Under the pieces are notes generated by a model. That model did no database searches, was not told the origin of the DNA, and saw nothing but the letters and a program-made list of their open reading frames with translations. A stretch of 39,273 nucleotides of DNA from a virus, in IMG/VR virus record IMGVR_UViG_3300042881_004354, positions 1 to 39,273 of that record; one strand, written 5' to 3'. Both the position numbers and the translations under genes were made by a program. How positions within the stretch are numbered: the first letter of the stretch is position 1; each line of letters starts with the position of its first letter. Shown one piece after another: positions 3,859-38,935 of this stretch.

Positions 3859-4086
3859 GACTGGTATAGTCAAAACCAGTTCTAAAGAGCCTGCAATGTC
3901 TAAAATGAGTGTTAACTCACTGTGCTAACTCCGGCCTTCCGCGAGCATTTAACAGAGTAAAACAGGCCCGATTCACTTGAACCCATAACTGGTCATTTCC
4001 CTTCTGTTACAGAGTAAAGAGTGACAATTTTGCATACATTTTAGGTATTTCATTGCATAACTAATAGTGCTAATTTTCACTTCGTT
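3859..4086. promoter_or_regulatory. Divergent control region between leftward genes and integrase
   Basis: A 228-bp AT-rich gap between the minus-strand early genes and the plus-strand integrase, so promoters for both directions should lie here. It holds a copy of the dispersed motif (3863-3877) inside a CTGGT/ACCAG inverted repeat. A direct repeat ACAGAGTAAA occurs at 3952-3961 and 4009-4018, a direct repeat GTGCTAA near 3922 and 4066, and TTGCATA twice before the integrase (about 4030 and 4053). Paired direct repeats beside an integrase are also what arm-type binding sites of an attP look like. I cannot point to a convincing -35/-10 pair or to the attP core. Confidence 0.6.
3863..3877 (+). 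promoter_or_regulatory. Dispersed 15-bp motif, copy 1
   Basis: GGTATAGTCAAAACC, one mismatch from the consensus GGTTTAGTCAAAACC. It is 5 bases upstream of the ATG at 3858 and in the divergent control region, oriented with the integrase. A repressor bound here could block the main leftward transcript. Confidence 0.6.
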
Positions 4087-10977: not shown

Positions 10978-10992
10978 TGATTTGACTAAACC
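10978..10992 (-). promoter_or_regulatory. Dispersed 15-bp motif, copy 4
   Basis: Reads GGTTTAGTCAAATCA in the gene direction, with an exact 12-mer core. It lies in the 45-bp gap between the 2,782-aa gene and the tail fibre, 5 bases before the fibre ATG. A 15-bp sequence shared with 33006-33020 (GTGGCGCAATAGTTT) lies next to it at 11005-11019. Confidence 0.7.
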
Positions 10993-11004: not shown

Positions 11005-11019
11005 GTGGCGCAATAGTTT
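11005..11019 (+). repeat. 15-bp repeat GTGGCGCAATAGTTT, copy near tail-fibre motif
   Basis: Second copy of the 15-mer at 33006-33020. It overlaps the stop codon of the giant gene by two bases and lies 12 bases from dispersed-motif copy 4. Confidence 0.5.
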
Positions 11020-14000
11020 ATTGCTCGCCGCTAAAGACGTTGTCGCCTACTTCGACGGTGTCCTTGACCAAGTTGCTGATGGCGGCGGCTCCGGCGATGG
11101 TGTTGTTGAAAAGTCCAGCGGTGGACAGGATGCGGTTGACGTCGCGGACGATGTCGCGGAACTCGGCTTCGCCTTCCAGCACTTGCGCCGGATACTCGGT
11201 CAACATGCGCTTGGCCGCTGGCACCGCGGGCGCGATGTCAAAAAGCGGGCCACTGGGCGTGTAGACTCCGAAGGCGTTGAAGATGGCGCTCTCGACGGCC
11301 TCGCCCACCACGGGGAATCCGTAGAGCGGGTCGCTGATGAGCATCGCGGCCATCCGGTTCCAGCCCCAGTTCTTCTCGTCAAAAGTCTCTTCGTCGTCGT
11401 CATCGCGGAGGTCGCGAAAGGCGTTGCGGATGATGGTGCCGACAAGCCCGTTCAAGACGAGGACGTAGAAGACCGCTTTGCCAAAATCCTTTCCGCTGCC
11501 CTTGGCTCCGGCGTAAAGGCCCAGCCCCAAGTTCTTCCGCGCCTCGCTGCTGAAGGCCCAGACGGCACGCGCCACGGGGTTAGTGCTGTTGATCTCAAAG
11601 ATCGACCGCGCACCGGCTCGCGTCGGCTGGGCGATTTCGTCCACGATGCGCTCGGTGGCCTCGCGGGCGTAGTCCGCGGCCTCCTGCCCGCCCATGCCGT
11701 TCTGGCGGGCTTGGGTCATTTGGTAGTCGTAGACGATGGCGTAGGTGCCTGCGGTAAAAAGTCCGTCAAACCCGCTGATGAGCGACCCGATCCGGCGGGC
11801 GGCTTCGCGGATGGCGTTCGGCTTTTCGGAGCGTAGCCCCTGCATGGCCAAGGCGACCGCGGGCGGCATGTCTTTGATCCGGCGCTGGATGTAGGCGCTG
11901 TCGAGCGCGGTCTTCCATCCCAAGCGACCAGACATGAGTTTGCCAAAGCGCGAGAGGTAAGCGCCCACGGGCATCTTGGCCGACGCCGCGCCAAGCTGGG
12001 TGACTTGCAAGGCCAAGGTCGAGATGCGCCCGAAAAGCGCCATCGTGGCAAAGTTGCCGGTCATCCGGTTGATCATCTGATTGATGGCCAGATGGTTCGC
12101 TGCGTCCTTGTTTCCGCCCTGCTGGAAGTATTGCAGCCAGTTGTTCATCACTGTCGCGGCCTGCTCACCGGCCTTGCCCTTGACCACGTTGCGTGTGTCG
12201 CGGTGGCCCAAGAGCGCGGAGACTTCGCCGTTGAACTCGGCGTAGGCTTTCCAGTGCGCCATCTGAAGCATGTGGCCGAAGTAGGTCTGCACCGCATCGC
12301 GGAAGACTGGCTGGGCGATGGCCCCGCCGCGGGAACGGAGGGCGCTGGGCGAGTTTGCCCCAGCGGCAAAGACGCCGCCGGTCACCGGATCGATGCCCGC
12401 CTGCTGGGGAGCGCGGATGCTTTCGACGACGAGCGGCGAGTAGAACTGGTTCTTCGGGAGGTTCAGCCCGTAGACCTTGCGGTAGACCTTGTTGATGGCC
12501 TCGTATTCCGCGTCGTATTTGTCGAGGAGGTATTGCCGGATGGCTTTGGCTTCACCGCGCAGGAGCTTCTCGGCCTTGTTGACGAAGTCTTGGTTGTAGT
12601 GCCACTTGCCCGCGGGTTGGCCGTCGCTGTCGAAGAATCCCTCCATGTGCTGGCGACCCTTCGGCTGCATCCACATCATGCTGATGGCCATGAGTTGGTT
12701 CTGGCTGTAGGAGACGCCGTCGATCTCCTCGTCCATCCGCGAGAGTTCAAAAAGCAACTGCTGCCCCTGCATCTCGCCGCCGCCCAGTTCGGAAAGAAAC
12801 GCGGCCCACTCGTCGGAAAGCGCGGCAATGTCGTCGCTCTTGGCATTGTCGGCCTTGCGCTGCCGGTCGCTGATCTGGCGGGCGATCTTGCTGTCGTTGC
12901 CAAAGACGTAGCGCAGGACTTGGTCGAAGTTGAGGAGGTTGAGCATGGCGCTCTCCCACTTCGATGGCAGGCTGTTCTCGCGCTTCAGAGCGTCTTGGCG
13001 GGCCTTGTCGTCCTCTGCGGATACTCCGGCATCCTTGGACAAATCGGTGCGGTCGTAGCCCCGCTTGGTGCGCTGGGCGATGATGCGCTGCTGCTCGCCC
13101 TTGTAGGCGCGGTTGAGGACGTCCTTGCCCATCGTGACCGCGGCGGCGCGTTGGCTGCTGTCGGCGTTGGCCCAGTCGGCAAAGAGCGGCACCATCTGCG
13201 CGGCCATCATGGCGTGGGTTTCCTCGTAGGGGTTGAGTTCGCCGTTTTCGATCCGCGCCCACTGGCCGTCGGCATACGCTTGCGCCTCCTCGGCGCTCCA
13301 CTCGGTGGCCTCCTTGAGCTTGTCGAACAGATCGTGGACGTCCGCGCCCAGCTTGCCCTTGGGTTTCTCCCCTGCCCCGCTGCGCTGCGGCTTGGCCCGC
13401 TTGAAGAGCTCGACTGCGGCGGTGTTGTATTCGTCGCGTAGGAACTTTTCCAGCGCCTCGTTGATCCGGTTGATGCGCTGGATAAAGACGTCGGCAATGG
13501 CGCGGTCGGCGCGAGTTGGGTCGAGGTTGCGCTCGGCGCGGTAACCGGCGGGAAGTTCGGTCTTCTTTTGCGCCTCGCCAATGTTCAGACCCTCGCGCAT
13601 CCACGCGGAGATGATGGCACCAGACATGCCGCGGACTTCGCTGACCTTCTGGTCGCCCTTGAATACGTCCATTGGATCGACCTTGGCCAGTTGCGTGTAG
13701 CCGCCGATCTTGCTGCGGACTTCCGGCGGCAGCACCGAAATGATGCCGTCGAGTTCGCCCAGTGCTTGCAGGATTTGCGTGCGGCGCATCTGCGCGAGGT
13801 CGCCGTCCTGCATACCGGCGAGCATGTCGCGGTTGTCGGCCATGACGCGGAGAAACTTCTCCTGCGCCTTCTCGTAGATTTTGACGCGCTCCAGAGGGTC
13901 GCGGTCGAGCCGGTTCAACGCCGCGCCGACGCGGTCGATTTCGGACTGGGTGGAGATGGAGTAACTGCGCGTGACAGATGGCGTTTCGCCATTGGCCCAG

Positions 14001-17000
14001 CGTTCCAAAAATCCATGCACGCGAGTCCACTTACCGGACTCCAACATCATGGCGGTGCCGTTGCCCAAGTCGTCTTCCAAGTCCAGATACGCGCCGTCGG
14101 CAGAAGTGACGAGGTCTTTGAGGACGCGCAACTGCGCTGACGTCGGGCGCAACCGGCTCCGCATGGAAATCGTGCCGCTGTTGCCATCGATGCGGACTGC
14201 GCCCAAGCGGAGGAAATCGGCCATGCTGCCCCACGTTTCGGTGTATTCCGGCATCCCGTCCCATTCGATCTCGCGGTGATCGATGCCGCGGCTGTCGCGT
14301 AAGTAGTCGCCTTGGCCGTCTGTCGGACGAAATGTAGCGCCATCGCGCTTGTAGCCGGACGCCTGTGAGCGGCCAGAGAAGTCGAGCATGGTGCCATCCG
14401 GCAAAACGTAGCCCGCTTCGTAAATGGAATTAGTGATGCCAAAGCGTTTCTTGGCGCTGGCAAAGATGTCTTCGGCGCTGACGCCGTTGATCGACTTGGC
14501 AACCGGCGTGTCCGGCGTGATGGCAACGTCCGCTTTGCGCTGCTCCTGCGCGGCGGCGATGGAGTAGTTAAACGACTCAAGGACAAGAGTTTGCTGTTCT
14601 GCTTTGTCGTTAGATTTGACTTTGTTGACCAGCGCGGCAATGCTGATGGCGGAGTCAAGGTCGAAGGGTGAGCCGTCTTCGGATGGCCTGCTGGCGAAAG
14701 CTGGTGGCAAACCCATGTCCCTTGGCTCCATTTTTTGTCCAAGATTGAATTCGTAAAAAACTCCTACGTTTTCATCAAAATCGTTTGGCTCTCTGACGGT
14801 GAAGTGAGAAGCGTAGATTTCGCCGTCGATAGCCACCGGAATAGCAAACCGGCGAAACTTTCTTGTTCCCTCGTAGGTTTTCTTTTTGGGGTCTGGTTCA
14901 GAAACGTCTACAGGAATTCCGTTCAAAACGATTTGTTCGGCCTCCAGCATAGGCGCAGCTTGTATGGCGGTTCTGGCCTTGGAAACAGACTCGGCTTTGC
15001 TTTCGGCAGTGAACTTAACTTCGGTGCCGGTTCGTTCGATCACCACAGACTTGCCTTGCAATGTCTCGGCAATCATCCGTCGGATGTAGTGCCGTAAGTT
15101 TTTAATGTCTGAAGGAATGTTCTCTTGCGGAAAGGTGATTTGAATCGGAGCGACAGATTTCGATGAAGGCCCGATAGAATAATTCTGCGTTTCCTGTGCC
15201 GCCTGCTCGACGCTGATCTGCTCGCCGTTGCGGGTGAGTATCTTGATCAGACTGTCGTCGAAGATGACGTAGTTGTAGGTTCCTTCTGTGCTGGATTCTG
15301 CCCGTTTTAGGTCAACTTTCAGTTTGGCAATTTTGTCCAATACGGCCTGCTTGCCGGATTCTTGTTGTTCAGCGGACAACCATTTTGCCTTATCCCATCC
15401 CTTTAATAGATTTTTCTGAATGGCAATTTCAGTTCGGATGGCGAGCGGATCTCCATTGACTCGGCTTCCTTGGTCGAGGTAGCGGATTCCCTTAATGCCT
15501 TTTTCATTGAGCATTTTGCTGATTGCGGGCGACCCAGCCTTGATAGCTCCAAAAACTTTTGGGTCTTGTTTGCGGGCATACTCATCTGCTGCAATTTCGT
15601 AAGCCTGCCTTCCTGTGTATTCCAAGGGCGCGTTGACAAACGAAAGAGCATTGCGGACGCGCTTGGACTGTTGGCTCAATGGCAAGTCCCAGTCGATCAA
15701 CTCGTCTGCCTCAACATCCAAAAGCACGTTGTAAATGCTTCCGTCAACTTTGGGATTGTCTGTTATTTCAATTTCCAGCCTGTCGCCTAATTCTTTTTTC
15801 AGCGCATTGCGTCCATCAATTTTGATCGGGCTATCTATGCCGCGAACCACAAGATCGTGTAGCTTTTCCGCGGTAGACCGCTTGAGGCTGTGCCGGATAG
15901 CCAAATCTCCCGCCAGCCAAGTGGAGATGTCGTAGCCATCCAAAAACACACGAGTCATGCGCTGCTGCTTCATAGCAGACACACCCTTGCGATATTCTTC
16001 GGCGGTCTGTATGCGCTCGGCAAAATACAGGCCATATCCGTAAACTTGCGCTCCTTCTCCTGTGCCAACTTTGCCAAGATCAAACTCATCAAACTCCGCG
16101 GGCGATCCATGCCACGCTTTGATTGAATAATTCGCAGGCCCACTAATCGTGACATCCGGCAGTGTGACGAGATTGCGTTCAACGTCGGGCTGGACGCGGG
16201 AACCGATGGAGTAGTTGTCCATCGTCTGCGCCGTCGCTGCCGCCTCGTAGCCGTAGATGGGGCGACCAGTCATAATGCGGCGCTCGACCATGTCGAATAG
16301 ATCAGACGGCGTGGTGATCTGGTTGAATCCCATCGTCTGCAAGTCCTTGATCAGCGCATCAAGGTCGGGCGCGTTTTTGCGGAACAAGTTGAAGACGCCT
16401 TTGACGCCAATGGCATTGCCGCCCTTGGATGCTTCGCGGATACGCTGCAACTCACCGGAGTATTGGTAGACCTTACTGCTGGTTTTGGCTGGCAAACCGC
16501 CCGCATCGCGCACGGCGTCGACAATATCAATGCCGCCCTCGCCTGCGGCCTCCGCGGCATCACGCTCCATCTCGGCTTGCAGTTCCTGCTCCAAGGCGAA
16601 TCGCTCGTCGTCGGTCAATCCGTCAACACCGCGTCCATCCGGCGCAACCTCCTGCGCGGTCTTTTCGCGGGAGCGGTCTACCAGTGCCTGCTGGTCAACG
16701 CCCACCGCCTCGGCCAAGAGTGCCTCAAAGTCGCGGTCGAGTTTCCCCTCGGCGCGTAGGCGGGCGAGGTTGTAGGCGCGGCGGAAGATGTCGCGGGTGA
16801 AGATGGCCAAGCGCCGGATAAAGCCGCGCAGGCCCGCGGGGATTTGCTCGTCGCGGATCTGACCGCGGAAGTAAGCCAAGGCAACGTCGGAGAACGCTTC
16901 GATGACGTCGGTGTCCGTCTCGGTGCGTAGCTGGCGATCCATCCGGTCGCTGTCGATCTGCGGCAGGATGTCGTTGAGTTGCTGACGGACGAAGTCAATG

Positions 17001-19366
17001 GTGACCCGTCCCTCGGCCATAGCCCGCTTGAGGTTGTCTTGGGCGAACTCGCGCATGACGATGGTGCCGTCCGCGCCCTCGTTGATGCGGATGATGGAGC
17101 GCCAGATGCCTTCGCGCAGTGCGCCTTGGTTGCTGCCGGTGACGGGGAAGTTGGCCAGTTCGGCGGGTTCGTTGATGTCCTGCCCGAAGGCGCGGACAGT
17201 CTCAAAGAGTCGGTCGAGGTTTTCCTGCGTCGGGTTGGCCTCGTAGTCGGTGAGCAGCGTGCGGGGTGCTTCCTCGCGGATGACCTTGGCAACGTCCTCG
17301 CCGCGCTGGCGGGCCTCGTTGACCTTCTGGATAAAGGCGACGGCTTCATTGATGCCGGTGTGGACGTCGCGCATCTCGCGCTGCACCGTCTCGCGGCGGG
17401 CGGATACCAGTGCCTGCTCGGCGGCGGTCTGGTCGGTCGTGCGGGCGAGTTCTTTGCCCTCCGGCGAGAGGACAACGTAGTCGGCCCCCTGCTTCTCCAG
17501 ACGCGGCAAGGCGGCGGGATTGGCCCTTTCGCGCAGGGCGATGGATTCGTCCACGATGCGCTGGGCGGCGGCTTTGACCAGCTTCGGGTCGCGCTTGGCG
17601 TGTTCCTCGACCAGTGCGGCTTGGGCGGCTTCGGCGCTCTCGGCTCCGGTGATGCGGTCGATCTGTTCGGGACTGTAGCCCATCTTCTCCAAGTCGGCTT
17701 TACTCTTGAGGTAGTTCTCGCCGCGGCTGATCTCGCGGTAGGACAGTGCGCCCACGCCCATGAGAGAAAGCGGAAGGAGGGCGACAAATTGCACCGCCAA
17801 TTCCCGCGGCATACCGGCGAGGCGCTCCTCCCAGTCGTAGTCGGGCATGTCGGCGTCGAGCGCCGCGGCGATGGTTTGGACAAACGGGAAGGTGGCGTTT
17901 TGCATGATCTCCTGCACGTTTTGCTCGGCCACGATTCCGGCCCCACCGATGGCGATGCGGGTGATGTTTCGCTGGTTGGGGTGTTGCAGGCGTTTGACTA
18001 AACCGCCAAAGACGGGCAGGCGTCCGGTAATCGTGTTGACCTTCATGCGCTCCAGACCGGCTTCGATGGGCGCGGAGATGGCGGCGATGAGCGCGGCCTT
18101 GTCGGGATCGATGCCGCGATATTCCAGCATGATGCGGTCGTAGTTGCTGCTAAACAGCGCGGAGGCCACGGCGGGAACGCCCGCAACCGGCACCGCGGCG
18201 GCGGCGGTGTAAGGGATGCTGCGGGCGGCTCCGTAAAGCCCCTCCTCAATCCATTCCGGCAAGAAGGTGACGGTCTGGATGGGATCGACGACGCGCTCGG
18301 CCAAGTCGCGCAATTCGCGCTCGACCATCAAAACCCCAAGGTCGGCTTGGATCTTGGCTTTGGCTTCCTCGCGTTCCTCCGGCGTGACCGGCGTTTGGCC
18401 TGCGGCGCTGAACTCGGCCCCGCCAATGCCCGCGGCGCGAAAGACCGGCTGGTTGCTTTCCAAAAGGCGAAGCTGACCGCGGAGCGTTTGCTCGCGGAAG
18501 TTGCGCGGAATGGCCTCGGTGAACGCTGCGCCACCGCGGCCAAGGGATTCGGCCAACTGATACCAAAAGCCTTTGTCGGTCTGGTTGAGTTGGGCAAAGC
18601 CTCCGGCCAGTTCGTAGATGGCTTGGCGCTGGGCGTCGGGTAGCTGGGCGAAACGTGCGGCCATTTCGCGCATGTCGGGCGCTCCGAAGCCGGTCTTTTG
18701 TCCGGTGGACTGCTGGAGGGCGTCGAAGATGAAGCGGGCCTCCGGTGCAAATTTGTCCTGCGAGGCGCGGATTTTCATGTCAAGTTCCTCGGCCTTCTCC
18801 CACAGGCGGGACTTTTCCTCGTCGTCGAACATCTCGGAGGCGGCATTGATGTCCTTGCCGACGCTTTCGACAAAAGGCGTGTCGCCGCCGGAGAGCGCGT
18901 CTTCCAAGCTGCGGCGGATGACGCCTTGCAGGATCTGATCGGCGGCGGCTTTCTTTTCGTTGCTGCGCTCAAATTGACCCTTTTGCCAGTCGAACATTTC
19001 GCGGGCGCTGGCCGTCTGCTTGCCCAACACCTTCTGGGCAAAGCCTTCCCTTTCCGCATCGAAGATCGACCGCATGTCGTCGAGCGGCACCTTGCGGGTG
19101 TCGGCCAAGTAGCCGATCATCGCTTGCCGGTAGACGTAGTCGTCGCCGTGCAGGCTGACCTTGGCTCCCTCGGTCATGCCCTTCTGCTTGGCGATGGAGT
19201 CGAAGTAGTTCTGGTCGGTAAAGACTTTGTTCCAGTGGCCCAGATCGACGTAGGGCGCGTTGTAGCCGCTGCGGCGACTCGGAGGCGCTCCGGCGCTGGG
19301 GTCGGTGTAAGTCCGCGCCTGCTGGGCTTCCTTGGACTGCGGGGTGGCGGCGAAGGAAATACTCAT
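11018..19366 (-). CDS. Giant polyvalent virion protein with ADP-ribosyltransferase-like domain, 2782 aa
   Basis: A 2,782-aa protein, likely ejected with the DNA. Approximate layout: 1-330 helical head part. 360-560 has hydrophobic stretches (PYTAAAAVPVAGVPAVASAL; ELAVQFVALLPLSLMGVGAL). About 1080-1370 is an ART-PolyVal-type ADP-ribosyltransferase domain: IKAWHGSPAEFDEFDLGKVG, YGYGLYFAE and the closing YVIFDDSLIKIL. About 1410-1540 resembles the polyvalent-associated LPD3 domain (RFAIPVAIDGEIYASHFTV). About 1640-1800 contains AGYVLPDGTMLDFSGR and RGIDHREIEWD, frequent in phage polyproteins. 1810-2780 is a long helical region with a hydrophobic FYVLVLNGLVGTII near 2640. Five (N/S)YSI motifs separate the middle domains. 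It is coupled by ATGA to the transglycosylase protein. By analogy with DarB/polyvalent proteins it may protect incoming DNA and modify host targets. Confidence 0.8.
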   Translation of the reverse strand: MSISFAATPQSKEAQQARTYTDPSAGAPPSRRSGYNAPYVDLGHWNKVFTDQNYFDSIAKQKGMTEGAKVSLHGDDYVYRQAMIGYLADTRKVPLDDMRSIFDAEREGFAQKVLGKQTASAREMFDWQKGQFERSNEKKAAADQILQGVIRRSLEDALSGGDTPFVESVGKDINAASEMFDDEEKSRLWEKAEELDMKIRASQDKFAPEARFIFDALQQSTGQKTGFGAPDMREMAARFAQLPDAQRQAIYELAGGFAQLNQTDKGFWYQLAESLGRGGAAFTEAIPRNFREQTLRGQLRLLESNQPVFRAAGIGGAEFSAAGQTPVTPEEREEAKAKIQADLGVLMVERELRDLAERVVDPIQTVTFLPEWIEEGLYGAARSIPYTAAAAVPVAGVPAVASALFSSNYDRIMLEYRGIDPDKAALIAAISAPIEAGLERMKVNTITGRLPVFGGLVKRLQHPNQRNITRIAIGGAGIVAEQNVQEIMQNATFPFVQTIAAALDADMPDYDWEERLAGMPRELAVQFVALLPLSLMGVGALSYREISRGENYLKSKADLEKMGYSPEQIDRITGAESAEAAQAALVEEHAKRDPKLVKAAAQRIVDESIALRERANPAALPRLEKQGADYVVLSPEGKELARTTDQTAAEQALVSARRETVQREMRDVHTGINEAVAFIQKVNEARQRGEDVAKVIREEAPRTLLTDYEANPTQENLDRLFETVRAFGQDINEPAELANFPVTGSNQGALREGIWRSIIRINEGADGTIVMREFAQDNLKRAMAEGRVTIDFVRQQLNDILPQIDSDRMDRQLRTETDTDVIEAFSDVALAYFRGQIRDEQIPAGLRGFIRRLAIFTRDIFRRAYNLARLRAEGKLDRDFEALLAEAVGVDQQALVDRSREKTAQEVAPDGRGVDGLTDDERFALEQELQAEMERDAAEAAGEGGIDIVDAVRDAGGLPAKTSSKVYQYSGELQRIREASKGGNAIGVKGVFNLFRKNAPDLDALIKDLQTMGFNQITTPSDLFDMVERRIMTGRPIYGYEAAATAQTMDNYSIGSRVQPDVERNLVTLPDVTISGPANYSIKAWHGSPAEFDEFDLGKVGTGEGAQVYGYGLYFAERIQTAEEYRKGVSAMKQQRMTRVFLDGYDISTWLAGDLAIRHSLKRSTAEKLHDLVVRGIDSPIKIDGRNALKKELGDRLEIEITDNPKVDGSIYNVLLDVEADELIDWDLPLSQQSKRVRNALSFVNAPLEYTGRQAYEIAADEYARKQDPKVFGAIKAGSPAISKMLNEKGIKGIRYLDQGSRVNGDPLAIRTEIAIQKNLLKGWDKAKWLSAEQQESGKQAVLDKIAKLKVDLKRAESSTEGTYNYVIFDDSLIKILTRNGEQISVEQAAQETQNYSIGPSSKSVAPIQITFPQENIPSDIKNLRHYIRRMIAETLQGKSVVIERTGTEVKFTAESKAESVSKARTAIQAAPMLEAEQIVLNGIPVDVSEPDPKKKTYEGTRKFRRFAIPVAIDGEIYASHFTVREPNDFDENVGVFYEFNLGQKMEPRDMGLPPAFASRPSEDGSPFDLDSAISIAALVNKVKSNDKAEQQTLVLESFNYSIAAAQEQRKADVAITPDTPVAKSINGVSAEDIFASAKKRFGITNSIYEAGYVLPDGTMLDFSGRSQASGYKRDGATFRPTDGQGDYLRDSRGIDHREIEWDGMPEYTETWGSMADFLRLGAVRIDGNSGTISMRSRLRPTSAQLRVLKDLVTSADGAYLDLEDDLGNGTAMMLESGKWTRVHGFLERWANGETPSVTRSYSISTQSEIDRVGAALNRLDRDPLERVKIYEKAQEKFLRVMADNRDMLAGMQDGDLAQMRRTQILQALGELDGIISVLPPEVRSKIGGYTQLAKVDPMDVFKGDQKVSEVRGMSGAIISAWMREGLNIGEAQKKTELPAGYRAERNLDPTRADRAIADVFIQRINRINEALEKFLRDEYNTAAVELFKRAKPQRSGAGEKPKGKLGADVHDLFDKLKEATEWSAEEAQAYADGQWARIENGELNPYEETHAMMAAQMVPLFADWANADSSQRAAAVTMGKDVLNRAYKGEQQRIIAQRTKRGYDRTDLSKDAGVSAEDDKARQDALKRENSLPSKWESAMLNLLNFDQVLRYVFGNDSKIARQISDRQRKADNAKSDDIAALSDEWAAFLSELGGGEMQGQQLLFELSRMDEEIDGVSYSQNQLMAISMMWMQPKGRQHMEGFFDSDGQPAGKWHYNQDFVNKAEKLLRGEAKAIRQYLLDKYDAEYEAINKVYRKVYGLNLPKNQFYSPLVVESIRAPQQAGIDPVTGGVFAAGANSPSALRSRGGAIAQPVFRDAVQTYFGHMLQMAHWKAYAEFNGEVSALLGHRDTRNVVKGKAGEQAATVMNNWLQYFQQGGNKDAANHLAINQMINRMTGNFATMALFGRISTLALQVTQLGAASAKMPVGAYLSRFGKLMSGRLGWKTALDSAYIQRRIKDMPPAVALAMQGLRSEKPNAIREAARRIGSLISGFDGLFTAGTYAIVYDYQMTQARQNGMGGQEAADYAREATERIVDEIAQPTRAGARSIFEINSTNPVARAVWAFSSEARKNLGLGLYAGAKGSGKDFGKAVFYVLVLNGLVGTIIRNAFRDLRDDDDEETFDEKNWGWNRMAAMLISDPLYGFPVVGEAVESAIFNAFGVYTPSGPLFDIAPAVPAAKRMLTEYPAQVLEGEAEFRDIVRDVNRILSTAGLFNNTIAGAAAISNLVKDTVEVGDNVFSGEQ
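17990..18004 (-). promoter_or_regulatory. Dispersed 15-bp motif, copy 5 (in coding sequence)
   Basis: Reads GGTTTAGTCAAACGC with an exact 12-mer core. It lies inside the giant gene and encodes G-L-V-K in frame (FGGLVKRLQ). Confidence 0.5.
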
Positions 19367-26297: not shown

Positions 26298-27203
26298 TTA
26301 GAGGACTTCGTCACACGGGACTTCGACGACTTTGGCTTCCTGCATGCGCGTTGCGCCCAAAGAGGCGACAGTGCGGATCTGCAAGGCGTGGCTCTTGTCG
26401 GCACGGATATCGACATGCACTTTGCGTCCCGCGTCGGCCAGCTTGATGCCGGACTTGACGTAGGCGAAGCATGTGCGGACGCCGGTTCCACTCGCGTAGG
26501 GCAAGAGGCTGGAAGCAACACGGCGGAAGGTGAATCCCATGAACGTGTTGATCTCGCCGTTGACCAAGGCGCGAACGGTGTTGAAGTCGCCGCTGGTCAC
26601 CTCGGTCGTGCGGAGCAAATCTTGGATTTGCTTGGCGCTGACGACCATGATGCGCGGGTCACTGTCATCAACTTCAGCGTTGGTGAGCAAGAACGCCGCT
26701 TGACGCAGCTTGGCGATGGTGAGGCCACTGTTGGCCGCGGAGCCGGTTTCGACGTAATCGACGCCGATCTTCTGTCCAGAGGGCAGAGCGGTCGGCGTGA
26801 CTCCGGTTTCTCCGGTGTAGGCGGTGCCAAGGGCGGCATCGATGATCACCTTGTCGGCGGTGCGGGCATAGGCGGCGGCGTGATTCGCAACCGTCTCGCT
26901 CTGGGGAAGGCTGACCTCGCCCAGATACTCGCTGTCCCACTCGTCGAACAACGTGGCGTGTTCAAACGGATAGGGGCGAAGCCAGCGTTTGGCCAAGGCC
27001 ACATCGCTGATGTTGGTGTCGGCTGCGCGGCTGGTGATGCGTTGCATCTCCACTGCGCCCATTTGATTGTAGGATTTCTCCTTGCCGCGGACTGTCTCGA
27101 CGGAAACGTATTCGCGCAGCTTGGAAAGTTTCTGCTGAAGCAGATGCTCCCAGTTGCTGGAGAACTCCGTCGTGAAGTATTGCGGAATTTGTGATACGGG
27201 CAT
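26298..27203 (-). CDS. Major capsid protein, 301 aa
   Basis: A 301-aa protein. The N-terminus (ISQ-type start, YFTTEFSSNWEHLLQQKLSK) has the helical arm. The body carries TSRAADTNISDVALAKRWLR, DEWDSEYLGEVSLPQSETV, RIMVVSAKQIQDLLRTTEVT and GFTFRRVASSLLP, the pattern of a small HK97-fold capsid family found in temperate and lytic podoviruses. A Shine-Dalgarno AGGAG lies 6 bases before the ATG, the clearest in the window, in keeping with high expression. A perfect copy of the dispersed 15-bp motif abuts this RBS on its upstream side. Upstream is a 344-bp region packed with repeats. Confidence 0.88.
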   Translation of the reverse strand: MPVSQIPQYFTTEFSSNWEHLLQQKLSKLREYVSVETVRGKEKSYNQMGAVEMQRITSRAADTNISDVALAKRWLRPYPFEHATLFDEWDSEYLGEVSLPQSETVANHAAAYARTADKVIIDAALGTAYTGETGVTPTALPSGQKIGVDYVETGSAANSGLTIAKLRQAAFLLTNAEVDDSDPRIMVVSAKQIQDLLRTTEVTSGDFNTVRALVNGEINTFMGFTFRRVASSLLPYASGTGVRTCFAYVKSGIKLADAGRKVHVDIRADKSHALQIRTVASLGATRMQEAKVVEVPCDEVL

Positions 27204-27216
27204 AACTAACTCCTTT

Positions 27217-27231
27217 GGTTTTGACTAAACC
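27217..27231 (-). promoter_or_regulatory. Dispersed 15-bp motif, copy 8 (perfect)
   Basis: GGTTTAGTCAAAACC in the gene direction, a perfect match, directly upstream of the capsid Shine-Dalgarno sequence. A protein bound here would sit between any capsid promoter and the gene. Confidence 0.75.
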
Positions 27232-27395
27232 GGCGTCGTGCCGATCTCGTCGGGTTGATTGGTTGTGGTGTCCTCGGCGCTACCGATTATCCGCGAACGC
27301 GGGTCGTCGGCCTTGGGCTGCCGTCGGACAGGCTCCACAAGGAGTTGTCTGCCTAACTGTGCGCGAGAATTGCGCTGCGCCGGAAGTGGCGCAAG

Positions 27396-27410
27396 GGTTT
27401 AGTCAAAAAA
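27396..27410 (+). promoter_or_regulatory. Dispersed 15-bp motif, copy 9 (reversed)
   Basis: GGTTTAGTCAAAAAA on the plus strand, with the exact 12-mer core, 164 bp from copy 8 and facing it. The preceding bases are GTGGCGCAA (27386-27394), also found near copies 4 and 11. A facing pair flanking a promoter-sized interval would suit looping by one repressor. Confidence 0.65.
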
Positions 27411-27547
27411 GTTTCGGGCTTTTGTGTATAGCAAAACGCCGTTCGGTATACACAACGTGTCGATGCCTTAAACATAATGCACACAAAGTGTCGAAATCTG
27501 TGCAAACCGTCGGCGCTTTTGCACAAATCATGTCACTTTGTGATAAT

Positions 27548-29072: not shown

Positions 29073-29942
29073 TTACGCGCTCGTCAGCATCCGGCGCACT
29101 TGGTCAACCACCTCCGCGTCACCCTCTTGGTAGCGACCGTAGAGCGGGTTGGATGCGTTGGTCATAATGTCCCGTGCGCGGGCGCGGGTGCTGCTCGCTC
29201 CGGTCTGGTCACCGGCTACCAGCTTGTCGTCGGAGAGCTTCTCCGCGAGGCTGACGATGGCCTTGACCACTTGCGGATCGACAAACCCTTGGGACGTCGG
29301 ATCGACTCCGGCGGTCACCGCGGCGCGGCGGGCCAGTTCGATCTTCTCCGGCATCTTGTCGCCCCAAACCTTTTGCAGTTCGGCCCGTCCGGTTTCCAGT
29401 TGGGTTTCGATCATCTGGGCGGCGGCTTGGTTCATCAAAGACGCCCGCTCCATGTCGAACTTCATCAGTTCGGTCATCGCGCTGGCGGGGATGTTGTGCT
29501 TGTAGGCGAGTTCCGCGGCGCGTTTGGCCACGCCTTCATCCCAGAAAACTCCCTCCGGCAGTTGCTCCGGCTTGAGGTTGTAGGCTTCGGGCGAATCGGG
29601 AACGCCGATGGCCTTGCGGTAGGCGGCAACTTCCTCCGGCGTGGACTTTTCGCTGGGAGGAACGATGGCGTTGGCCTTCTTGCCCAAGAGTTGCTCCAGC
29701 CCTTGGTAGGACTTGGAAAGGCTTTCAACGTCAGCCTTGTCGTTGCGCCAGAACTTCTCCGGTAGCCATTCGGGCTTTTCGGTTACTGCGGGCGCTGGCG
29801 CGTCGGTAACGCTGGCAGGCGCACTGGAAAGGAGTGTCCCTTCCGTTGTGGTGTTGAGGTTAGCAGCGGGTGCGGTGGACGCGGGAACAGCGGCGCTGTC
29901 CGCGGTGGTGCTGGTTTCGGAGGTGGTGGTTGCATCAGTCAT
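29073..29942 (-). CDS. Scaffolding protein, 289 aa
   Basis: A 289-aa acidic protein. Residues 1-55 are low-complexity Thr/Ala/Ser/Pro, then EKPEWLPEKFWRNDKADVES with SLSKSYQGLEQLLGKKANAI, the typical opening of podoviral and siphoviral scaffold proteins (PExxPEKFxxxDxxxxxxALxxSYxxLE). The remainder is helical, including AQMIETQLETGRAELQKVWG. The location between portal and capsid fits. It would guide capsid assembly inside the prohead and then leave. A copy of the dispersed motif lies 19 bases before the ATG. Confidence 0.88.
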   Translation of the reverse strand: MTDATTTSETSTTADSAAVPASTAPAANLNTTTEGTLLSSAPASVTDAPAPAVTEKPEWLPEKFWRNDKADVESLSKSYQGLEQLLGKKANAIVPPSEKSTPEEVAAYRKAIGVPDSPEAYNLKPEQLPEGVFWDEGVAKRAAELAYKHNIPASAMTELMKFDMERASLMNQAAAQMIETQLETGRAELQKVWGDKMPEKIELARRAAVTAGVDPTSQGFVDPQVVKAIVSLAEKLSDDKLVAGDQTGASSTRARARDIMTNASNPLYGRYQEGDAEVVDQVRRMLTSA

Positions 29943-29961: not shown

Positions 29962-29976
29962 TGTTTTGACTAAACC
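29962..29976 (-). promoter_or_regulatory. Dispersed 15-bp motif, copy 10
   Basis: GGTTTAGTCAAAACA in the gene direction with the exact 12-mer core, 19 bases upstream of the scaffold ATG and 4 bases after the stop of the 96-aa gene. One mismatch to the 15-mer. Confidence 0.7.
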
Positions 29977-32920: not shown

Positions 32921-33281
32921 ATTTTTGAGTAAGTTTGTCGGTCGAAAAGAAAGTCAGCGGATGGCCACTCCTCTCCCATGCGATGAGCGGAAGATAAAAC
33001 GGTATGTGGCGCAATAGTTTTTTGACTAAACCCTGCAAGCCTTGATCGTCGGCCAAGGCAAAGGCGTAGACATACCACGCATCCCAGTCCTTGCGCTGGA
33101 AGCCACACCAGACGTCGTTGATTATCTCCTGCGGTGCGGCACTGCAAACCGGACGCGCCATCATCACATACTCCGGCGTGCTAAAAAAACAGCCATGCGA
33201 GAGGTGCGCCAGCATGTCTTCCTCAAACGTCCGCGGGCTGTCCGCGGTGTAGAGCAGTTTGCACTTTTGAATCGGCGTCAT
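32892..33281 (-). CDS. Hypothetical protein downstream of terminase, 129 aa
   Basis: A 129-aa protein: EEDMLAHLSHGCFFSTPEYV and MMARPVCSAAPQEIINDVW, then an aromatic-rich DWDAWYVYAFALADDQGL, and HIPFYLPLIAWERSGHPLTF. The HLSHGCxxSTPEYxxMARPV pattern is shared by a podovirus family next to TerL, of unknown function. It is coupled to TerL by ATGA, suggesting a packaging or virion role. It contains copy 11 of the dispersed motif, encoding G-L-V-K-K. Confidence 0.7.
   Translation of the reverse strand: MTPIQKCKLLYTADSPRTFEEDMLAHLSHGCFFSTPEYVMMARPVCSAAPQEIINDVWCGFQRKDWDAWYVYAFALADDQGLQGLVKKLLRHIPFYLPLIAWERSGHPLTFFSTDKLTQKYAKLSLVQD
33006..33020 (+). repeat. 15-bp repeat GTGGCGCAATAGTTT, copy near 129-aa gene motif
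   Basis: An identical 15-mer occurs at 11005-11019. The first nine bases, GTGGCGCAA, also occur at 27386-27394. All three are within about 15 bases of a copy of the dispersed motif. A single 15-mer pair could be chance in a genome this size. The shared company of the motif is what makes it notable. Confidence 0.5.
33018..33032 (-). promoter_or_regulatory. Dispersed 15-bp motif, copy 11 (in coding sequence)
   Basis: GGTTTAGTCAAAAAA in the gene direction, with the exact 12-mer core. It lies in the 129-aa gene, encoding G-L-V-K-K in frame (LQGLVKKLL). Confidence 0.55.
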
Positions 33282-35238: not shown

Positions 35239-35901
35239 TCAAATTAAAACATTGACCGCTTGGTCGTTTGGTTTCCTTAAATATCCTTCCTTACTTGGTT
35301 TCGCTCCTGCCTGTGCGCTATTGAGTCGTGCGTAGTCCTCCGGTTTGGCCTTGTGGCACGCGATGAAAGTCTCGGTCGCATCTTCCGCTGGCGCATTGCA
35401 TGTAAATCGGGAGTCGTTCTCCGGTATTACGCGGATCAGATGCAAATTGATCGCTACCGTCGCATCGCTGCTCCGGTGGTGCCGCACCAGTTCTCCATGC
35501 CAGTGTCGCTGTTGCAACGCCAGCGCGGTCGCCCGCGAGAGCGCGTAGCCGCACCCGCCATGAATGGATGGAAATTTGTGGGTGTCGTTGGATAGCACGC
35601 CCTGCACGCATCCAATGGCGTGATGCTCGTCGGGATTGAGGTCGATCAGTCGCAGTTCCAAGCGCCTTGGAACGACGTAGCCGTCGTCGTCCACGATGTA
35701 GAGCCAGTCGTAGTGCGGCTGGAACGTGTCGAGCGCGTAAATCGTCTTGTCTATCGCGCTCAAGTAGTCCCCTCGCCCCACATGCTCGTCGCTGACAAAG
35801 CGGACGGTGCTGGGTTTTTGAACGTGTCGCGTCCAGTTTTCGCACAGCGTGCGCCGGTCGCGGGTGCGCTCGCTCGTTTGGATGGCGTAGTCGATCTTCA
35901 T
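35239..35901 (-). CDS. Fringe/GT31-like glycosyltransferase, 220 aa
   Basis: A 220-aa protein with the GT-A pattern of the Fringe/GT31 family. It has TSERTRDRRTLCENW near residue 9, DWLYIVDDDGYVVPRRL with a DDD metal-binding motif at 71-73, IHGGCGYALSRATALAL (compare GGAGxxxS) at 114-130, SSDATVAINLHLIRV at 144-158 (compare DDxTxGxxL) and FIACHKAKPEDY at 179-190. It would transfer a sugar from a nucleotide donor to a protein, glycan or DNA acceptor. This family is mainly eukaryotic, and phage members are few. No signal peptide, so it is cytoplasmic. It lies upstream of terminase in the main transcript. The start at 35901 overlaps the previous stop. Activity is inference. Confidence 0.72.
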   Translation of the reverse strand: MKIDYAIQTSERTRDRRTLCENWTRHVQKPSTVRFVSDEHVGRGDYLSAIDKTIYALDTFQPHYDWLYIVDDDGYVVPRRLELRLIDLNPDEHHAIGCVQGVLSNDTHKFPSIHGGCGYALSRATALALQQRHWHGELVRHHRSSDATVAINLHLIRVIPENDSRFTCNAPAEDATETFIACHKAKPEDYARLNSAQAGAKPSKEGYLRKPNDQAVNVLI

Positions 35902-36107
35902 GGGTTTTGCCATCCTTCGTCCGGTTTGTTGCGCCAACCCCAGTGCGTGTAGTCTTCGTAAAAGCGCGGCTCGTAGCGTTGTGTCCACGACGCCATTTCC
36001 AGCCAGCGCCACTCCCCGCGCATTTCTTTGGGAAAAATAAGAAAGCGCCTAACAATGCGCCGGTCGCCGCTGTTGGGCTGCGGCTTGTTGTTTTCGTGCC
36101 ATCTCAT
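35898..36107 (-). CDS. Hypothetical protein, 69 aa, W/R-rich
   Basis: A 69-aa protein: RRFLIFPKEMRGEWRWLEMA, then WTQRYEPRFYEDYTHWGWRN. The FLxFPKxxxGExRWLExxxxxQxY pattern is a recurring small phage protein family of unknown function. It is very aromatic and basic. Its stop overlaps the glycosyltransferase start, so the two may be a functional pair, but this is only position. Confidence 0.7.
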   Translation of the reverse strand: MRWHENNKPQPNSGDRRIVRRFLIFPKEMRGEWRWLEMASWTQRYEPRFYEDYTHWGWRNKPDEGWQNP

Positions 36108-37149: not shown

Positions 37150-37352
37150 CGTCTTTTGGTTTTGACTAAACCGCGCCGAAAGTATTGCGGATTGCGTTCC
37201 ATCCACGCGACCACTTCGCCGGTATTGCCGACGTCCGCGGCGCGAAAGGCGTTGTCGGAAACGAGGTAGCAACGCTCTGCGAGAATGTTCATCACCGTAA
37301 TCTCGTCATCGTGCAGGACGTTCTGGATGTAGGACTCCAGCGTGTTGGGCAT
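37146..37352 (-). CDS. Hypothetical protein, 68 aa
   Basis: A 68-aa protein: LESYIQNVLHDDEITVMNIL, then CYLVSDNAFRAADVGNTGEV and a closing WMERNPQYFRRGLVKTKRR. The ...VAWMERNPQYFRRGLVK end is directly encoded by a perfect copy of the dispersed motif. It starts inside the end of the 133-aa gene (46-base overlap). No recognised family; possibly a small regulator. Confidence 0.65.
   Translation of the reverse strand: MPNTLESYIQNVLHDDEITVMNILAERCYLVSDNAFRAADVGNTGEVVAWMERNPQYFRRGLVKTKRR
37158..37172 (-). promoter_or_regulatory. Dispersed 15-bp motif, copy 12 (perfect, in coding sequence)
   Basis: GGTTTAGTCAAAACC in the gene direction, a perfect match. It encodes G-L-V-K-T at the end of the 68-aa protein and is 8 bases upstream of the ATG of the 38-aa gene. 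Confidence 0.65.
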
Positions 37353-37707
37353 GCGTGGATTTTATGGGTGTGGTCAAATGCCGCTGCTCAAAATTGGCGG
37401 CATAATTTCCACGCTCAACCTCCAGCTTGTAGTAAGCAAAAGAAACCATGCCCAATATGTGAGCGTCTGTTGGGACAAAATATTTCCATCCAGCAGACAT
37501 TCCTTTGCTTATGTAATAACAAAAAAACGCTGCTTTTTTTCCGGTGTCTTTTTTTAAAATAAGTGTCGCTGTCGCGTCTGACATTGGAATGATTTCGCTT
37601 ACTTCAAAGGTTTCTTTGTTGAAGTTCCCTTCGCGGTCTTGGCGCGAAAACCGTCGCGCCAACTCGTCGGCAAATCTTTGTAGTTCGTGAGCTAAATGCT
37701 TGTTCAC
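37306..37707 (-). CDS. Hypothetical protein, 133 aa, early operon
   Basis: A 133-aa protein from a GTG start: NKHLAHELQRFADELARRFS, a beta-rich middle (SEIIPMSDATATLILKKDTG, KKAAFFCYYISKGMSAG) and an end SFAYYKLEVERGNYAANFE. The core looks like a small single-domain protein, and no motif is recognised. The DNA of this gene is noticeably more AT-rich than its neighbours (poly-A and poly-T runs around 37420-37560), which may reflect recent acquisition. The GTG overlaps the previous stop (GTGA). Confidence 0.6.
   Translation of the reverse strand: MNKHLAHELQRFADELARRFSRQDREGNFNKETFEVSEIIPMSDATATLILKKDTGKKAAFFCYYISKGMSAGWKYFVPTDAHILGMVSFAYYKLEVERGNYAANFEQRHLTTPIKSTHAQHAGVLHPERPAR
37367..37381 (+). 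promoter_or_regulatory. Dispersed 15-bp motif, copy 14 (weak variant)
   Basis: GGTGTGGTCAAATGC, with several mismatches but the GGT...GTCAAA frame intact. It is 14 bases upstream of the ATG of the 68-aa gene, oriented against transcription. Included as a low-confidence member. Confidence 0.25.
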
Positions 37708-38543
37708 GCTGCCACCACCCCTTCTAACTCGCGGATCTTCTCGCGGATGCGGGCGACCTCGGCCTTGGCCTCCGGCTTCCACTCGGTTTCCCAAGGTGTC
37801 TGCGCTTTATGCTGTCGCAAACGGGGGTCGCCCTTCATTCGCTCCAGCTTCGCTTTTAAGGCGTCGATGCCCTGTTTGGCATCCCAGACGCCGCGGGGTT
37901 TAGTCAAAGCCGTGGCGGGGCGTTTACGCTCGTTCTCGGCCCAATGTGATGCAAAGCGTGATAGGTCATGCGGCATGGACTTGATCGGGATCGCATTTCG
38001 ATCCACCCAACCTACCGCTTCGCGGGCGTCGTAATACGCCTTGCACACTTCCGGCGTTACGCTGGCCATCTGACCGGCTGCGACAACCTCCTCCAAAGTC
38101 CACCCGCGGCGGATAGATAGATCCATAGAAGATGAAGATGAAGAAGAAGGGGTTGGTTTTTGCTTGCCGGTTTGCTTAACCAAATTCCCAAGCAAAAGCG
38201 GGTTGCCCCCCTTGCTTCCGGCCTCGGCCCGAATCTGTCTAATCTCCTCATCACGAACCATTCGCCGCGAAAAGATCGCGCCATTTTCGTCGCGGGAGAA
38301 CACTTTATTCTCCTCCAGTTCTTTCAATAATTTGAGGCAGGTTTGCGGCGACAAACCCACAAGTTTTGCGAGGGTTTTGTGCGAGAAACCCCTGCCGTTT
38401 TGCGTGAGTTTGCCGTATTCGTCGCACTCATGGGCGATGCACATCATCTCGACCCACAGCCCTCGCGCCGCCAGCGAGCAGAGCCGGAGGCCGGAGTCGT
38501 TGCGCCAGTCCGACGGATAGAATTGAAAGGATGGGCGCTTCAC
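37704..38543 (-). CDS. Phage replisome-organiser/DnaT-like protein, 279 aa
   Basis: A 279-aa protein from a GTG start that overlaps the RusA stop (GTGA). The N-terminus RPSFQFYPSDWRNDSGLRLC and SLAARGLWVEMMCIAHECDE is typical of phage replication proteins with a YPxDWxxDxxxxxxSxxARGLWxxM entry. Then comes a winged-helix segment SHKTLAKLVGLSPQTCLKLL (about 53-75), a Ser-rich linker PTPSSSSSSSMD and a C-terminal domain (ITPEV-like, then FASHWAENERKRPATAL) as in DnaT-like or primosomal proteins. It should bind the replication origin and recruit the host helicase. No polymerase or helicase is encoded, in keeping with dependence on the host. Confidence 0.75.
   Translation of the reverse strand: MKRPSFQFYPSDWRNDSGLRLCSLAARGLWVEMMCIAHECDEYGKLTQNGRGFSHKTLAKLVGLSPQTCLKLLKELEENKVFSRDENGAIFSRRMVRDEEIRQIRAEAGSKGGNPLLLGNLVKQTGKQKPTPSSSSSSSMDLSIRRGWTLEEVVAAGQMASVTPEVCKAYYDAREAVGWVDRNAIPIKSMPHDLSRFASHWAENERKRPATALTKPRGVWDAKQGIDALKAKLERMKGDPRLRQHKAQTPWETEWKPEAKAEVARIREKIRELEGVVAA
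37897..37911 (+). promoter_or_regulatory. Dispersed 15-bp motif, copy 13 (reversed, in coding sequence)
   Basis: GGTTTAGTCAAAGCC on the plus strand with the exact 12-mer core, inside the replication gene. The gene strand encodes A-L-T-K-P there, so the G-L-V-K reading does not apply to this copy. Confidence 0.5.
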
Positions 38544-38935
38544 AGCCTCTCCTTCATCGTGATTTCCAAATACGGATCTCCCACGCGGCACTTCTCCGCG
38601 ACCAGTTGATCCACCAGCGCGTCGTCCGCGATCCATCCGGCAGGCACCAGCGCGTCCAAAACGCCCTTGCACAAGTTGTCGAGGTCGGGTCGCACCGCGT
38701 GGATGCGCTCGTTTGGCCGCGCCTTGGTCACGCGGAACGCAAACTTGATCTTGATCAAGACTGGAAATTCCACCGGTTGCCGCGGCTTGAATTGCCGAAG
38801 CTGCAAGACCAGCGCGTCCTGCGCGTCCTTGACCTTTTTCTTTGTGAAGAACATGGGGCGACCGGCGCGAACCATCACGCCCTTCTGCTGGGCGGTGACG
38901 GTTGGTGGGTCGCCGTTAATAATTGCGGTAATCAT
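38540..38935 (-). CDS. rusA: RusA-like Holliday junction resolvase, 131 aa
   Basis: A 131-aa protein of the RusA family, which cuts four-way junctions formed during recombination. The signature RPDLDNLCKGVLDALVPAGW (Asp84, Asp86 and Lys90) followed by IADDALVDQL (Asp pair about 104-105) is directly visible, with a preceding strand PVLIKIKFAFRV. The length fits RusA. It is coupled to both neighbours by ATGA or GTGA. It resolves junctions made by the RecE/RecT-like pair before packaging. Confidence 0.88.
   Translation of the reverse strand: MITAIINGDPPTVTAQQKGVMVRAGRPMFFTKKKVKDAQDALVLQLRQFKPRQPVEFPVLIKIKFAFRVTKARPNERIHAVRPDLDNLCKGVLDALVPAGWIADDALVDQLVAEKCRVGDPYLEITMKERL

What the first reader, a model, noticed from the sequence alone, without database searches (positions are those of the whole stretch)
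27204..27547. Dense repeat region before the capsid gene, flanked by facing copies of the dispersed motif
Within 344 bp there are two facing dispersed motifs, two larger inverted repeats (TTGTGTATA/TATACACAA and TGTGCAAA/TTTGCACA), a 14-bp direct repeat at a 31-bp step, and small ACAC-N3-GTGT and TCAC-N3-GTGA palindromes. A 31-bp step is about three helical turns, so bound proteins would lie on the same face. This looks like a complex late-gene switch with more than one regulator. No gene explains the conservation pressure.
Basis: seen in the sequence. Interest (0 to 1): 0.55.

Follow-up and report, generated by a model that had tools for sequence, protein, structure and literature searches.

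The report
Paired-hairpin RNA leader before capsid gene
The gap in front of this phage's shell-protein gene holds a folded RNA leader with two similar hairpins, shared by distant relatives, which looks like an undescribed way of controlling how much shell protein is made.

Summary
But those in the distal part (27409-27547) are poorly conserved: in 38 distinct upstream regions of leader-bearing relatives (window's own included, exact letters) both TTGTGTATA arms are in 7, the TGTGCAAA pair in 2, the 31-bp pair in 2. The conserved part is nearer the capsid gene: a structured RNA at 27357-27270, minus strand, behind a predicted promoter. A covariance model found five loci outside its training set (three lineages), each just before a capsid gene; 14 of 24 pairs show two-sided changes. 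Rfam: no match in 28 sources.

In wider HTVC010P-like phages the leader reduces to two hairpins, each with a 4-nt/1-nt internal loop, often with the same last two letters in both. In 28 new leader clusters the hairpins score above shuffles. Letter agreement was 7 of 28 with the scan fixed beforehand (permutation 2774/20000, not significant) and 11 of 28 with a tightened scan (22/20000). Best reading: a 5' RNA element controlling capsid mRNA through two jointly recognised sites. Partner and effect are not shown.

The parts
26298..27203 (-). major capsid gene (HTVC010P-like)
   Evidence: phrog_3437, E 9.9e-63; Pelagibacter HTVC-type capsids at 41-47% in the best rows
27210..27215 (-). AAGGAG, predicted ribosome site of the capsid gene
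   Evidence: read; complementary to 27339-27346 (pair I11, 8 nt, 100%)
27219..27230 (-). dispersed motif GTTTAGTCAAAA, capsid-proximal copy (possible operator)
   Evidence: the motif stands before the ribosome site in most leaders printed, not in L170 or L036-L040
27231..27243 (-). P4 hairpin CGGC-acgac-GCCG, in the window's clade only
   Evidence: by eye, with compensating letters (CGGC/GCCG, CCGC/GCGG, CCGAC/GUCGG); not counted by a tool
27270..27357 (-). structured RNA leader core (P1, P2, P3)
   Evidence: covariance model match, 99.1 bits (the window is in the training set); pair counts; fold z -3.86 for 27204-27412
27327..27353 (-). hairpin A (P1): GGCAG-ACAA-CTCC-TTGT-GGAG-C-CTGTC
   Evidence: helices 1 and 2: 100% and 94% of cells paired; 6 of 9 pairs with two-sided changes
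27339..27346 (-). AACTCCTT inside hairpin A, complementary to the ribosome site
27282..27311 (-). hairpin B (P3): GCCGA-CGAC-CCGCG-TT-CGCGG-ATAA-TCGGT; 3' loop ATAA
   Evidence: helices 4 and 5: 93% and 95% of cells paired; 4 of 10 pairs with two-sided changes
27366..27394 (-). predicted promoter TTGCGC-N17-AATTCT; start expected near 27358
   Evidence: aligned by eye over the leaders (TTGACC-N17-AATTCT or AAATCT in some); weak consensus; no transcript data
27397..27408 (+). dispersed motif GTTTAGTCAAAA, upstream facing copy
27422..27455 (.). inverted repeat TTGTGTATA / TATACACAA, variable part
   Evidence: both arms in 7 of 38 regions
27450..27494 (.). 31-bp-step direct repeat ACACAA(C/A)GTGTCGA, variable part
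   Evidence: pair in 2 of 38 regions
27482..27542 (.). imperfect inverted repeat with 25-nt arms containing TGTGCAAA/TTTGCACA, variable part
   Evidence: (I1, 80% complementary): 2 of 38 regions

Best explanation
The conserved part of the gap is the 5' untranslated leader of the capsid mRNA. Transcription probably starts near 27358, so hairpin A is made first, then hairpin B. In the wider family each hairpin holds a similar small internal loop (four letters facing one letter, the first of the four usually A facing C or G facing U), turned in opposite directions in the two hairpins. The two loops are most likely read as a pair, by one partner (protein or RNA) or by docking on each other, and this controls capsid mRNA. 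In the window's clade and some relatives hairpin A also carries a sequence complementary to the capsid ribosome site, so stabilising hairpin A would free that site and losing it would hide it. The facing GTTTAGTCAAAA motifs may be operators that keep the promoter quiet in a lysogen. Supported by computation: the conserved fold, its place before capsid genes, the paired-loop geometry; the letter agreement less firmly. Inferred: start site, partner, sign of the effect, operator role.
For: Model R1 (15 leaders) found L114 (E 4e-7), L115 and L116 (5e-5), L068 (0.004) and L069 (0.005) outside its training set, on the capsid strand and within about 55 nt of the capsid match; these are three lineages (L116 repeats L115, L069 nearly repeats L068); E-values are rough. 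Pair counts on 26 distinct rows: 89.0% of cells paired against 27-45% for slid controls; 14 of 24 pairs with two-sided changes against 6.0 +/- 1.4 shuffled (0/500); covariation score 0.199 against 0.110 +/- 0.009 (0/500). Leader present in 29 of 31 relatives read. Twin-hairpin score, scan written before the new leaders were fetched: 38.9 against 35.0 +/- 0.66 shuffled in 28 new clusters, 39.9 against 35.0 +/- 0.64 in 41 earlier ones; last two letters agree in 7 of 28 and 13 of 41, a number no shuffle reached (0/150, 0/100). Tightened scan: 11 of 28 (permutation 22/20000) and 19 of 41 (0/20000); excess largest for a 4-letter loop among lengths 2-6. Rewarding the A/C or G/U opposition: 38 of 69 have both oppositions and agreement, against 1.4 in shuffles and 0.83 in other segments of the same records, maximum 4 in each. 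Ribosome-site pairing at least 0.61 in 11 of 13 folded leaders.
Against: With the scan fixed beforehand, letter agreement in the 28 new clusters is not significant against permuted labels (7, permutation mean 4.8, 2774/20000); the tightened scan and the A/C-G/U rule were settled after I had read those leaders. Clusters share ancestry. Agreement fails in L038/L111 (ACAA/ACAC), L302, L305, L460, and other leaders gave no twin pair. The strict genome scan puts the capsid leader first in 3 of 6 leader-bearing genomes and misses it in ZP6, HTVC010P and Vibrio 1.182.O; it lists 5-28 sites per genome, so such sites also arise by chance. Folding alone does not form hairpin A in any of 13 leaders (probability at most 0.03). 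P2 is weak (65% of cells), and 'further pair types' exceeds shuffles only modestly (12/500). Ribosome-site hiding is not general (36 leaders, 0.33 against 0.37 shuffled). Promoters are modest (13 of 38 with at least 9 of 12). Some HTVC010P-like phages have no gap before the capsid gene (L220, L222, L226, L227).
Confidence: 0.5

Rival explanations
1. A cis-acting antiterminator RNA that works like HK022 put: the nascent twin hairpins bind host RNA polymerase at the start of the late transcript and let it read through terminators in the structural operon.
For: Two stem-loops near the predicted start of a transcript, as in put (PMC9378689, section 7 read). Hairpin A lies 5-35 nt behind the -10 box in the 13 leaders with the better promoters, median 9.
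Against: Loop letters vary between lineages, which a host-polymerase contact does not predict. Nothing here tests read-through. No Rfam match. The element was found just before capsid genes; the model search of the whole window gave that one site.
Confidence: 0.17
2. A plain 5' stabiliser: hairpins at the mRNA end slow decay and raise capsid yield, with no dedicated partner; the loop similarity is structural, for instance the two loops docking on each other.
For: Position near the predicted 5' end; conserved stems. No RNA-binding gene shared between the window and leader-bearing phages was recognised. Docking alone could couple the letters.
Against: Stability alone does not need a 4-nt loop of fixed size with recurring letters.
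Confidence: 0.15
3. Autogenous control: capsid protein binds the two loops and represses its own translation.
For: Location directly before the capsid gene; two sites would suit an oligomer (inference).
Against: L010 encodes a capsid 100% identical over residues 1-301 but has TATA/AATA where the window has ACAA/ATAA.
Confidence: 0.08
4. One reading: the gap is a DNA switch bound by several regulators, and the repeats at 27409-27547 are its sites.
For: Repeats above chance; the facing motif is conserved and belongs to a dispersed set; GACACGTTG recurs in 21 of 38 regions. It can coexist with the RNA leader.
Against: The 31-bp pair and large inverted repeats are in 2, 7 and 2 of 38 regions. No CI-like repressor recognised among the ORFs scanned (30 with PHROGs; 20 with Pfam).
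Confidence: 0.1

Closest known systems
HK022 put antiterminator RNA
   Same: Two stem-loops near the start of a phage transcript, acting (if at all) in cis
   Different: put is about 73 nt, with an RNA triplex and a V shape, bound to the polymerase zinc-binding domain (PMC9378689, passages, section 7). Nothing shows such features here, and this leader stands before a late structural gene, not early genes
Mu-gpT-DE RNA motif (recalled; Weinberg and colleagues 2017)
   Same: As recalled, a candidate structured RNA upstream of a phage major head protein gene
   Different: Known to me from memory only: the paper is not held and one search listed only another paper naming it. I did not check whether Rfam holds this family; Rfam gave no match here
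Anti-Shine-Dalgarno translational switches (riboswitch expression platforms)
   Same: Hairpin A contains AACUCCUU, which can pair with the capsid ribosome site
   Different: No ligand domain known; not general in the wider family
Stoperators of cluster A mycobacteriophages
   Same: Short sites scattered over a temperate phage genome with a strand bias: 58 of 81 sites on the capsid strand in seven related genomes (my tally)
   Different: No repressor identified, and the motif is nearly palindromic (my reading). Stoperators known from abstracts in the listing and from memory

Membership tests
Any described RNA family (Rfam 15) | match at the family's gathering score | tested here: not met
   0 matches in the window, 7 loci and 20 loci; in the gap at E up to 10 four weak matches, far below gathering scores and from eukaryotic or plant-virus families
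HK022 put RNA | two stem-loops close to the transcript start | tested here: inconclusive
   stem-loops supported; the start site is only predicted
HK022 put RNA | binding to RNA polymerase and suppression of termination | not testable with these tools
   needs transcription assays
HK022 put RNA | put sequence or tertiary features (triplex, A-G platform) | not tested
   features read; no put sequence was compared
Mu-gpT-DE RNA motif | its own covariance model | not tested
   presence of the family in the Rfam copy was not checked; paper not held
Anti-Shine-Dalgarno switch | leader segment complementary to the ribosome site and in competition with a conserved hairpin | tested here: met
   window's clade and some relatives only: pairing at least 0.61 in 11 of 13 folded leaders, 0.34 in L036, 0.00 in L038; conserved competing hairpin; not met in the wider family
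Anti-Shine-Dalgarno switch | change of translation with state | not testable with these tools
   needs a reporter
Stoperator system | dispersed sites with a strand bias | tested here: met
   11-13 sites at up to 1 mismatch in seven related genomes, 0 for the reversed pattern; 0 sites in two distant genomes; 58 of 81 on the capsid strand
Stoperator system | a repressor that binds the sites and stops transcription | tested here: inconclusive
   no CI-like repressor recognised; a winged-helix protein at 37704-38672 (PF13412, 22.7 bits, cut-off 21.9) looks more like a replisome organiser; not all ORFs were scanned

The most novel reading that the evidence does not exclude
HTVC010P-like phages share a two-site RNA element at the start of the capsid message in which a small loop code (A or U, then A, C or G) is written twice and switched in both places at once, as in immunity specificities: a lineage-specific regulator, or an internal docking, that licenses capsid production and limits cross-talk between co-infecting relatives.
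Probability: 0.22. Interest if true: 0.82.

Novelty: new variant of a known kind. Interest (0 to 1): 0.57.

Why it matters
The capsid protein is needed in large amounts, and I found no description of how HTVC010P-like phages set its level. If the leader works as proposed, it is a new RNA control element in a widespread phage group. By eye it is also present in named phages such as HTVC010P, Alteromonas phage ZP6, Vibrio phage K300 and Vibrio phage 1.182.O, so it can be tested at the bench. Two loops that may change together invite a clean double-swap experiment that separates recognition by a partner from internal docking.

Tried and rejected
Facing motifs as the closing helix of the RNA: they are fully complementary, but the upstream copy lies before the predicted start and is turned round in L025, L026, L029 and L057. 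Rejected.

Ribosome-site hiding as the family-wide function: 36 leaders with a clear site, unpaired 0.33 against 0.37 shuffled, 19 of 36 below their own shuffle mean. Rejected as general.

Capsid protein as the partner: set aside because of L010.

A genome segment tracking the loop type: by eye on the DNA comparison of the window with six relatives (L017 and L021 are TATA type, L021 a partial genome) I saw none specific to either type; alleles were not compared. A shared RNA-binding gene: window ORFs against five leader-bearing and two leaderless phages gave virion, packaging, lysis and DNA-metabolism genes and a few short overlapping frames. The 289-aa protein at 29073-29942 was matched in HTVC010P, Vibrio 1.182.O and MW202510 only: a weak lead.

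Host: one distant capsid in a Phycisphaerales MAG contig; the host stays unknown.

An earlier idea that J letters pair with the P1 loop UUGU or with a third strand was tried by eye and did not fit the TATA and ACAC types. Scans with 4-letter loops miss other geometries (ZP6 reads as two hairpins of type A; L133 and L140 did not fit). No structure prediction was run.

Papers: for PMC9378689 I saw found passages and section 7. All other papers were seen only as search listings with the start of the abstract. The library is limited to open licences.

Full report
Setting. The window is a whole virus record (39,273 bases) with a 104-bp end repeat. It encodes an HTVC010P-type capsid (26298-27203, minus) and an integrase (4087-5232, plus).

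Two halves of the gap. Relatives came from capsid searches (71 loci; 40 loci) and from one 16-base pattern (66 contigs; by my reading, 49 are leaders, two of them cut before the capsid start, and 17 are unrelated hits). I read the upstream region of 31 of the 71 capsid relatives: 29 carry the capsid-proximal leader, and L042 and L044 did not match its pattern. In 38 distinct 200-nt regions upstream of leaders (chosen because they carry the leader; the window's own included; exact letters) both TTGTGTATA arms occur in 7, the left arm alone in 4 more, the TGTGCAAA pair in 2, the 31-bp pair in 2, GACACGTTG in 21, the facing motif in 28 and a turned copy in 5. The distal half is variable; the proximal half is conserved.

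The conserved half is RNA. The strand read toward the capsid gene folds better than its shuffles (z -3.86). Model R1, built from 15 leaders, was run over 61 sources and gave 15 matches. Outside the training set were L204 (a close relative) and L114, L115/L116 and L068/L069 (three lineages), each just before a capsid gene. On 26 distinct rows 89.0% of cells pair; 14 of 24 pairs have two-sided changes (shuffled 6.0 +/- 1.4, 0/500) and further pair types are 23 against 19.0 +/- 1.7 (12/500); slid controls give 27-45%. The alignment was fitted to the structure, which favours it. P2 is the weakest helix (65%). Rfam gives nothing in 28 sources.

The wider family. Leaders of more distant relatives suggested a core of two hairpins. 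Hairpin A: stem, four loop letters, stem, hairpin loop, stem, one letter, stem. Hairpin B: the one letter comes first and the four letters follow the hairpin loop. So the local motif is similar but faces the other way. I noted that the last two of the four letters tend to agree between hairpins and wrote a scan that scores stems only. I then fetched 233 usable new leaders (some from the same contigs) and kept 28 clusters unlike the 41 earlier ones.

Fixed test. With the scan, hairpin scores are 38.9 against 35.0 +/- 0.66 (28 new clusters) and 39.9 against 35.0 +/- 0.64 (41 earlier). Letters agree in 7 of 28 (shuffles: mean 2.1, max 6, 0/150) and 13 of 41 (mean 3.0, max 8, 0/100). Against permuted labels, which keeps the common letters, the new set is not significant (mean 4.8, 2774/20000); the earlier set is (19/20000).

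Tightened test. After reading the new leaders I fixed the opposing strand to one letter and saw that A tends to face C and G to face U. With that scan, agreement is 11 of 28 (permutation 22/20000) and 19 of 41 (0/20000). The A/C or G/U opposition is in 34 of 56 and 54 of 82 hairpins (shuffled 7.2 and 11.0). The excess score is largest for loops of four letters, though lengths 2, 3, 5 and 6 also exceed shuffles by about 2-3. With the opposition rewarded, 53 of 69 leaders have it in both hairpins (shuffled 17) and 38 of these agree (1.4 in shuffles, 0.83 in other segments of the same records, maximum 4 in each). These figures are strong but not held out. Among the scan's picks are AA, AC, AG, UA, UC and UG.

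Limits. Letters differ in L038/L111, L302, L305 and L460. A strict scan of whole genomes puts the capsid leader first in the window, K300 and MW202510, misses it in ZP6, HTVC010P and Vibrio 1.182.O, where I saw it by eye only, and finds none before the capsid gene of Piluca or TPWB-05; it lists 5-28 sites per genome. Four named phages have the capsid gene directly after the previous gene.

How it may work. In 38 leaders the best promoter upstream of hairpin A matches 8.18 of 12 letters on average (7.33 shuffled, 6.76 inside the capsid gene); 13 reach 9, with hairpin A 5-35 nt behind (median 9). Hairpin B mostly ends 26-98 nt before the start codon. In the window's clade and some relatives hairpin A contains CUCCUU, complementary to the ribosome site. 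Of 13 leaders folded, the site is paired in all (unpaired at most 0.18), with hairpin A's segment in 11, and hairpin A itself hardly forms in any (at most 0.03), although covariation supports it. I read this as a two-state leader; it could also mean that folding alone is misleading. It does not extend to the wider family, whose common feature is the two loops. One partner, or docking, would explain loops that change together. Capsid protein is unlikely to set the letters: L010 has an identical capsid and different letters.

Dispersed motif. GTTTAGTCAAAA has 11-13 sites at up to one mismatch in each of seven related genomes (one partial), none in two distant ones, none for the reversed pattern; 58 of 81 lie on the capsid strand (my tally). 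No repressor was recognised.

Verdict. The main conserved signal is an RNA leader of capsid messages that no search here found described. Its two-loop geometry is well supported, its letter coupling moderately, its mechanism only inferred.

Noticed in passing
L012, L014, L033, L035, L129, L206, upstream of the leader: In place of the window's distal repeats some relatives carry an element that looks like a tRNA: a T-arm-like GCGGG-UGCAAGU-CCCGC and an acceptor-like GGCGGUG/CACCGCC with a long extra arm. ARAGORN reports no tRNA in L012, L014, L033 and L035; present within 200 nt in 4 of 38 regions.
   Followed up: partly
window 3864-3875 (+), 10980-10991, 29964-29975, 33020-33031, 37160-37171 (-): The dispersed motif also stands before the integrase gene and other genes; some copies lie inside genes (for example 17992, 19644). 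A repressor system of stoperator type is possible.
   Followed up: partly
L057, L084, L154, L188, L204, about 60-110 nt upstream of the promoter: A CAT followed by CTCCTTT on the capsid strand, that is a start codon and ribosome site of a gene reading the other way, stands where the window has repeats.
   Followed up: no
window 27420-27525: TTTTGCACA (27517-27525) fits the DnaA-box consensus as I recall it and CTATACACA/GTATACACA differ by one letter; an origin function of the variable part was not tested.
   Followed up: no
window 11018-19366 (-): A 2782-codon open frame, very large for a 39-kb phage.
   Followed up: no
window 35239-36012 (-): A Fringe-like glycosyltransferase match (PF02434, 28.3 bits, cut-off 21).
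   Followed up: no
L068 4025-4109 and L069 3577-3661: In these distant leaders the ribosome site and start codon themselves appear to lie in the P2/P3 helices (by eye).
   Followed up: no
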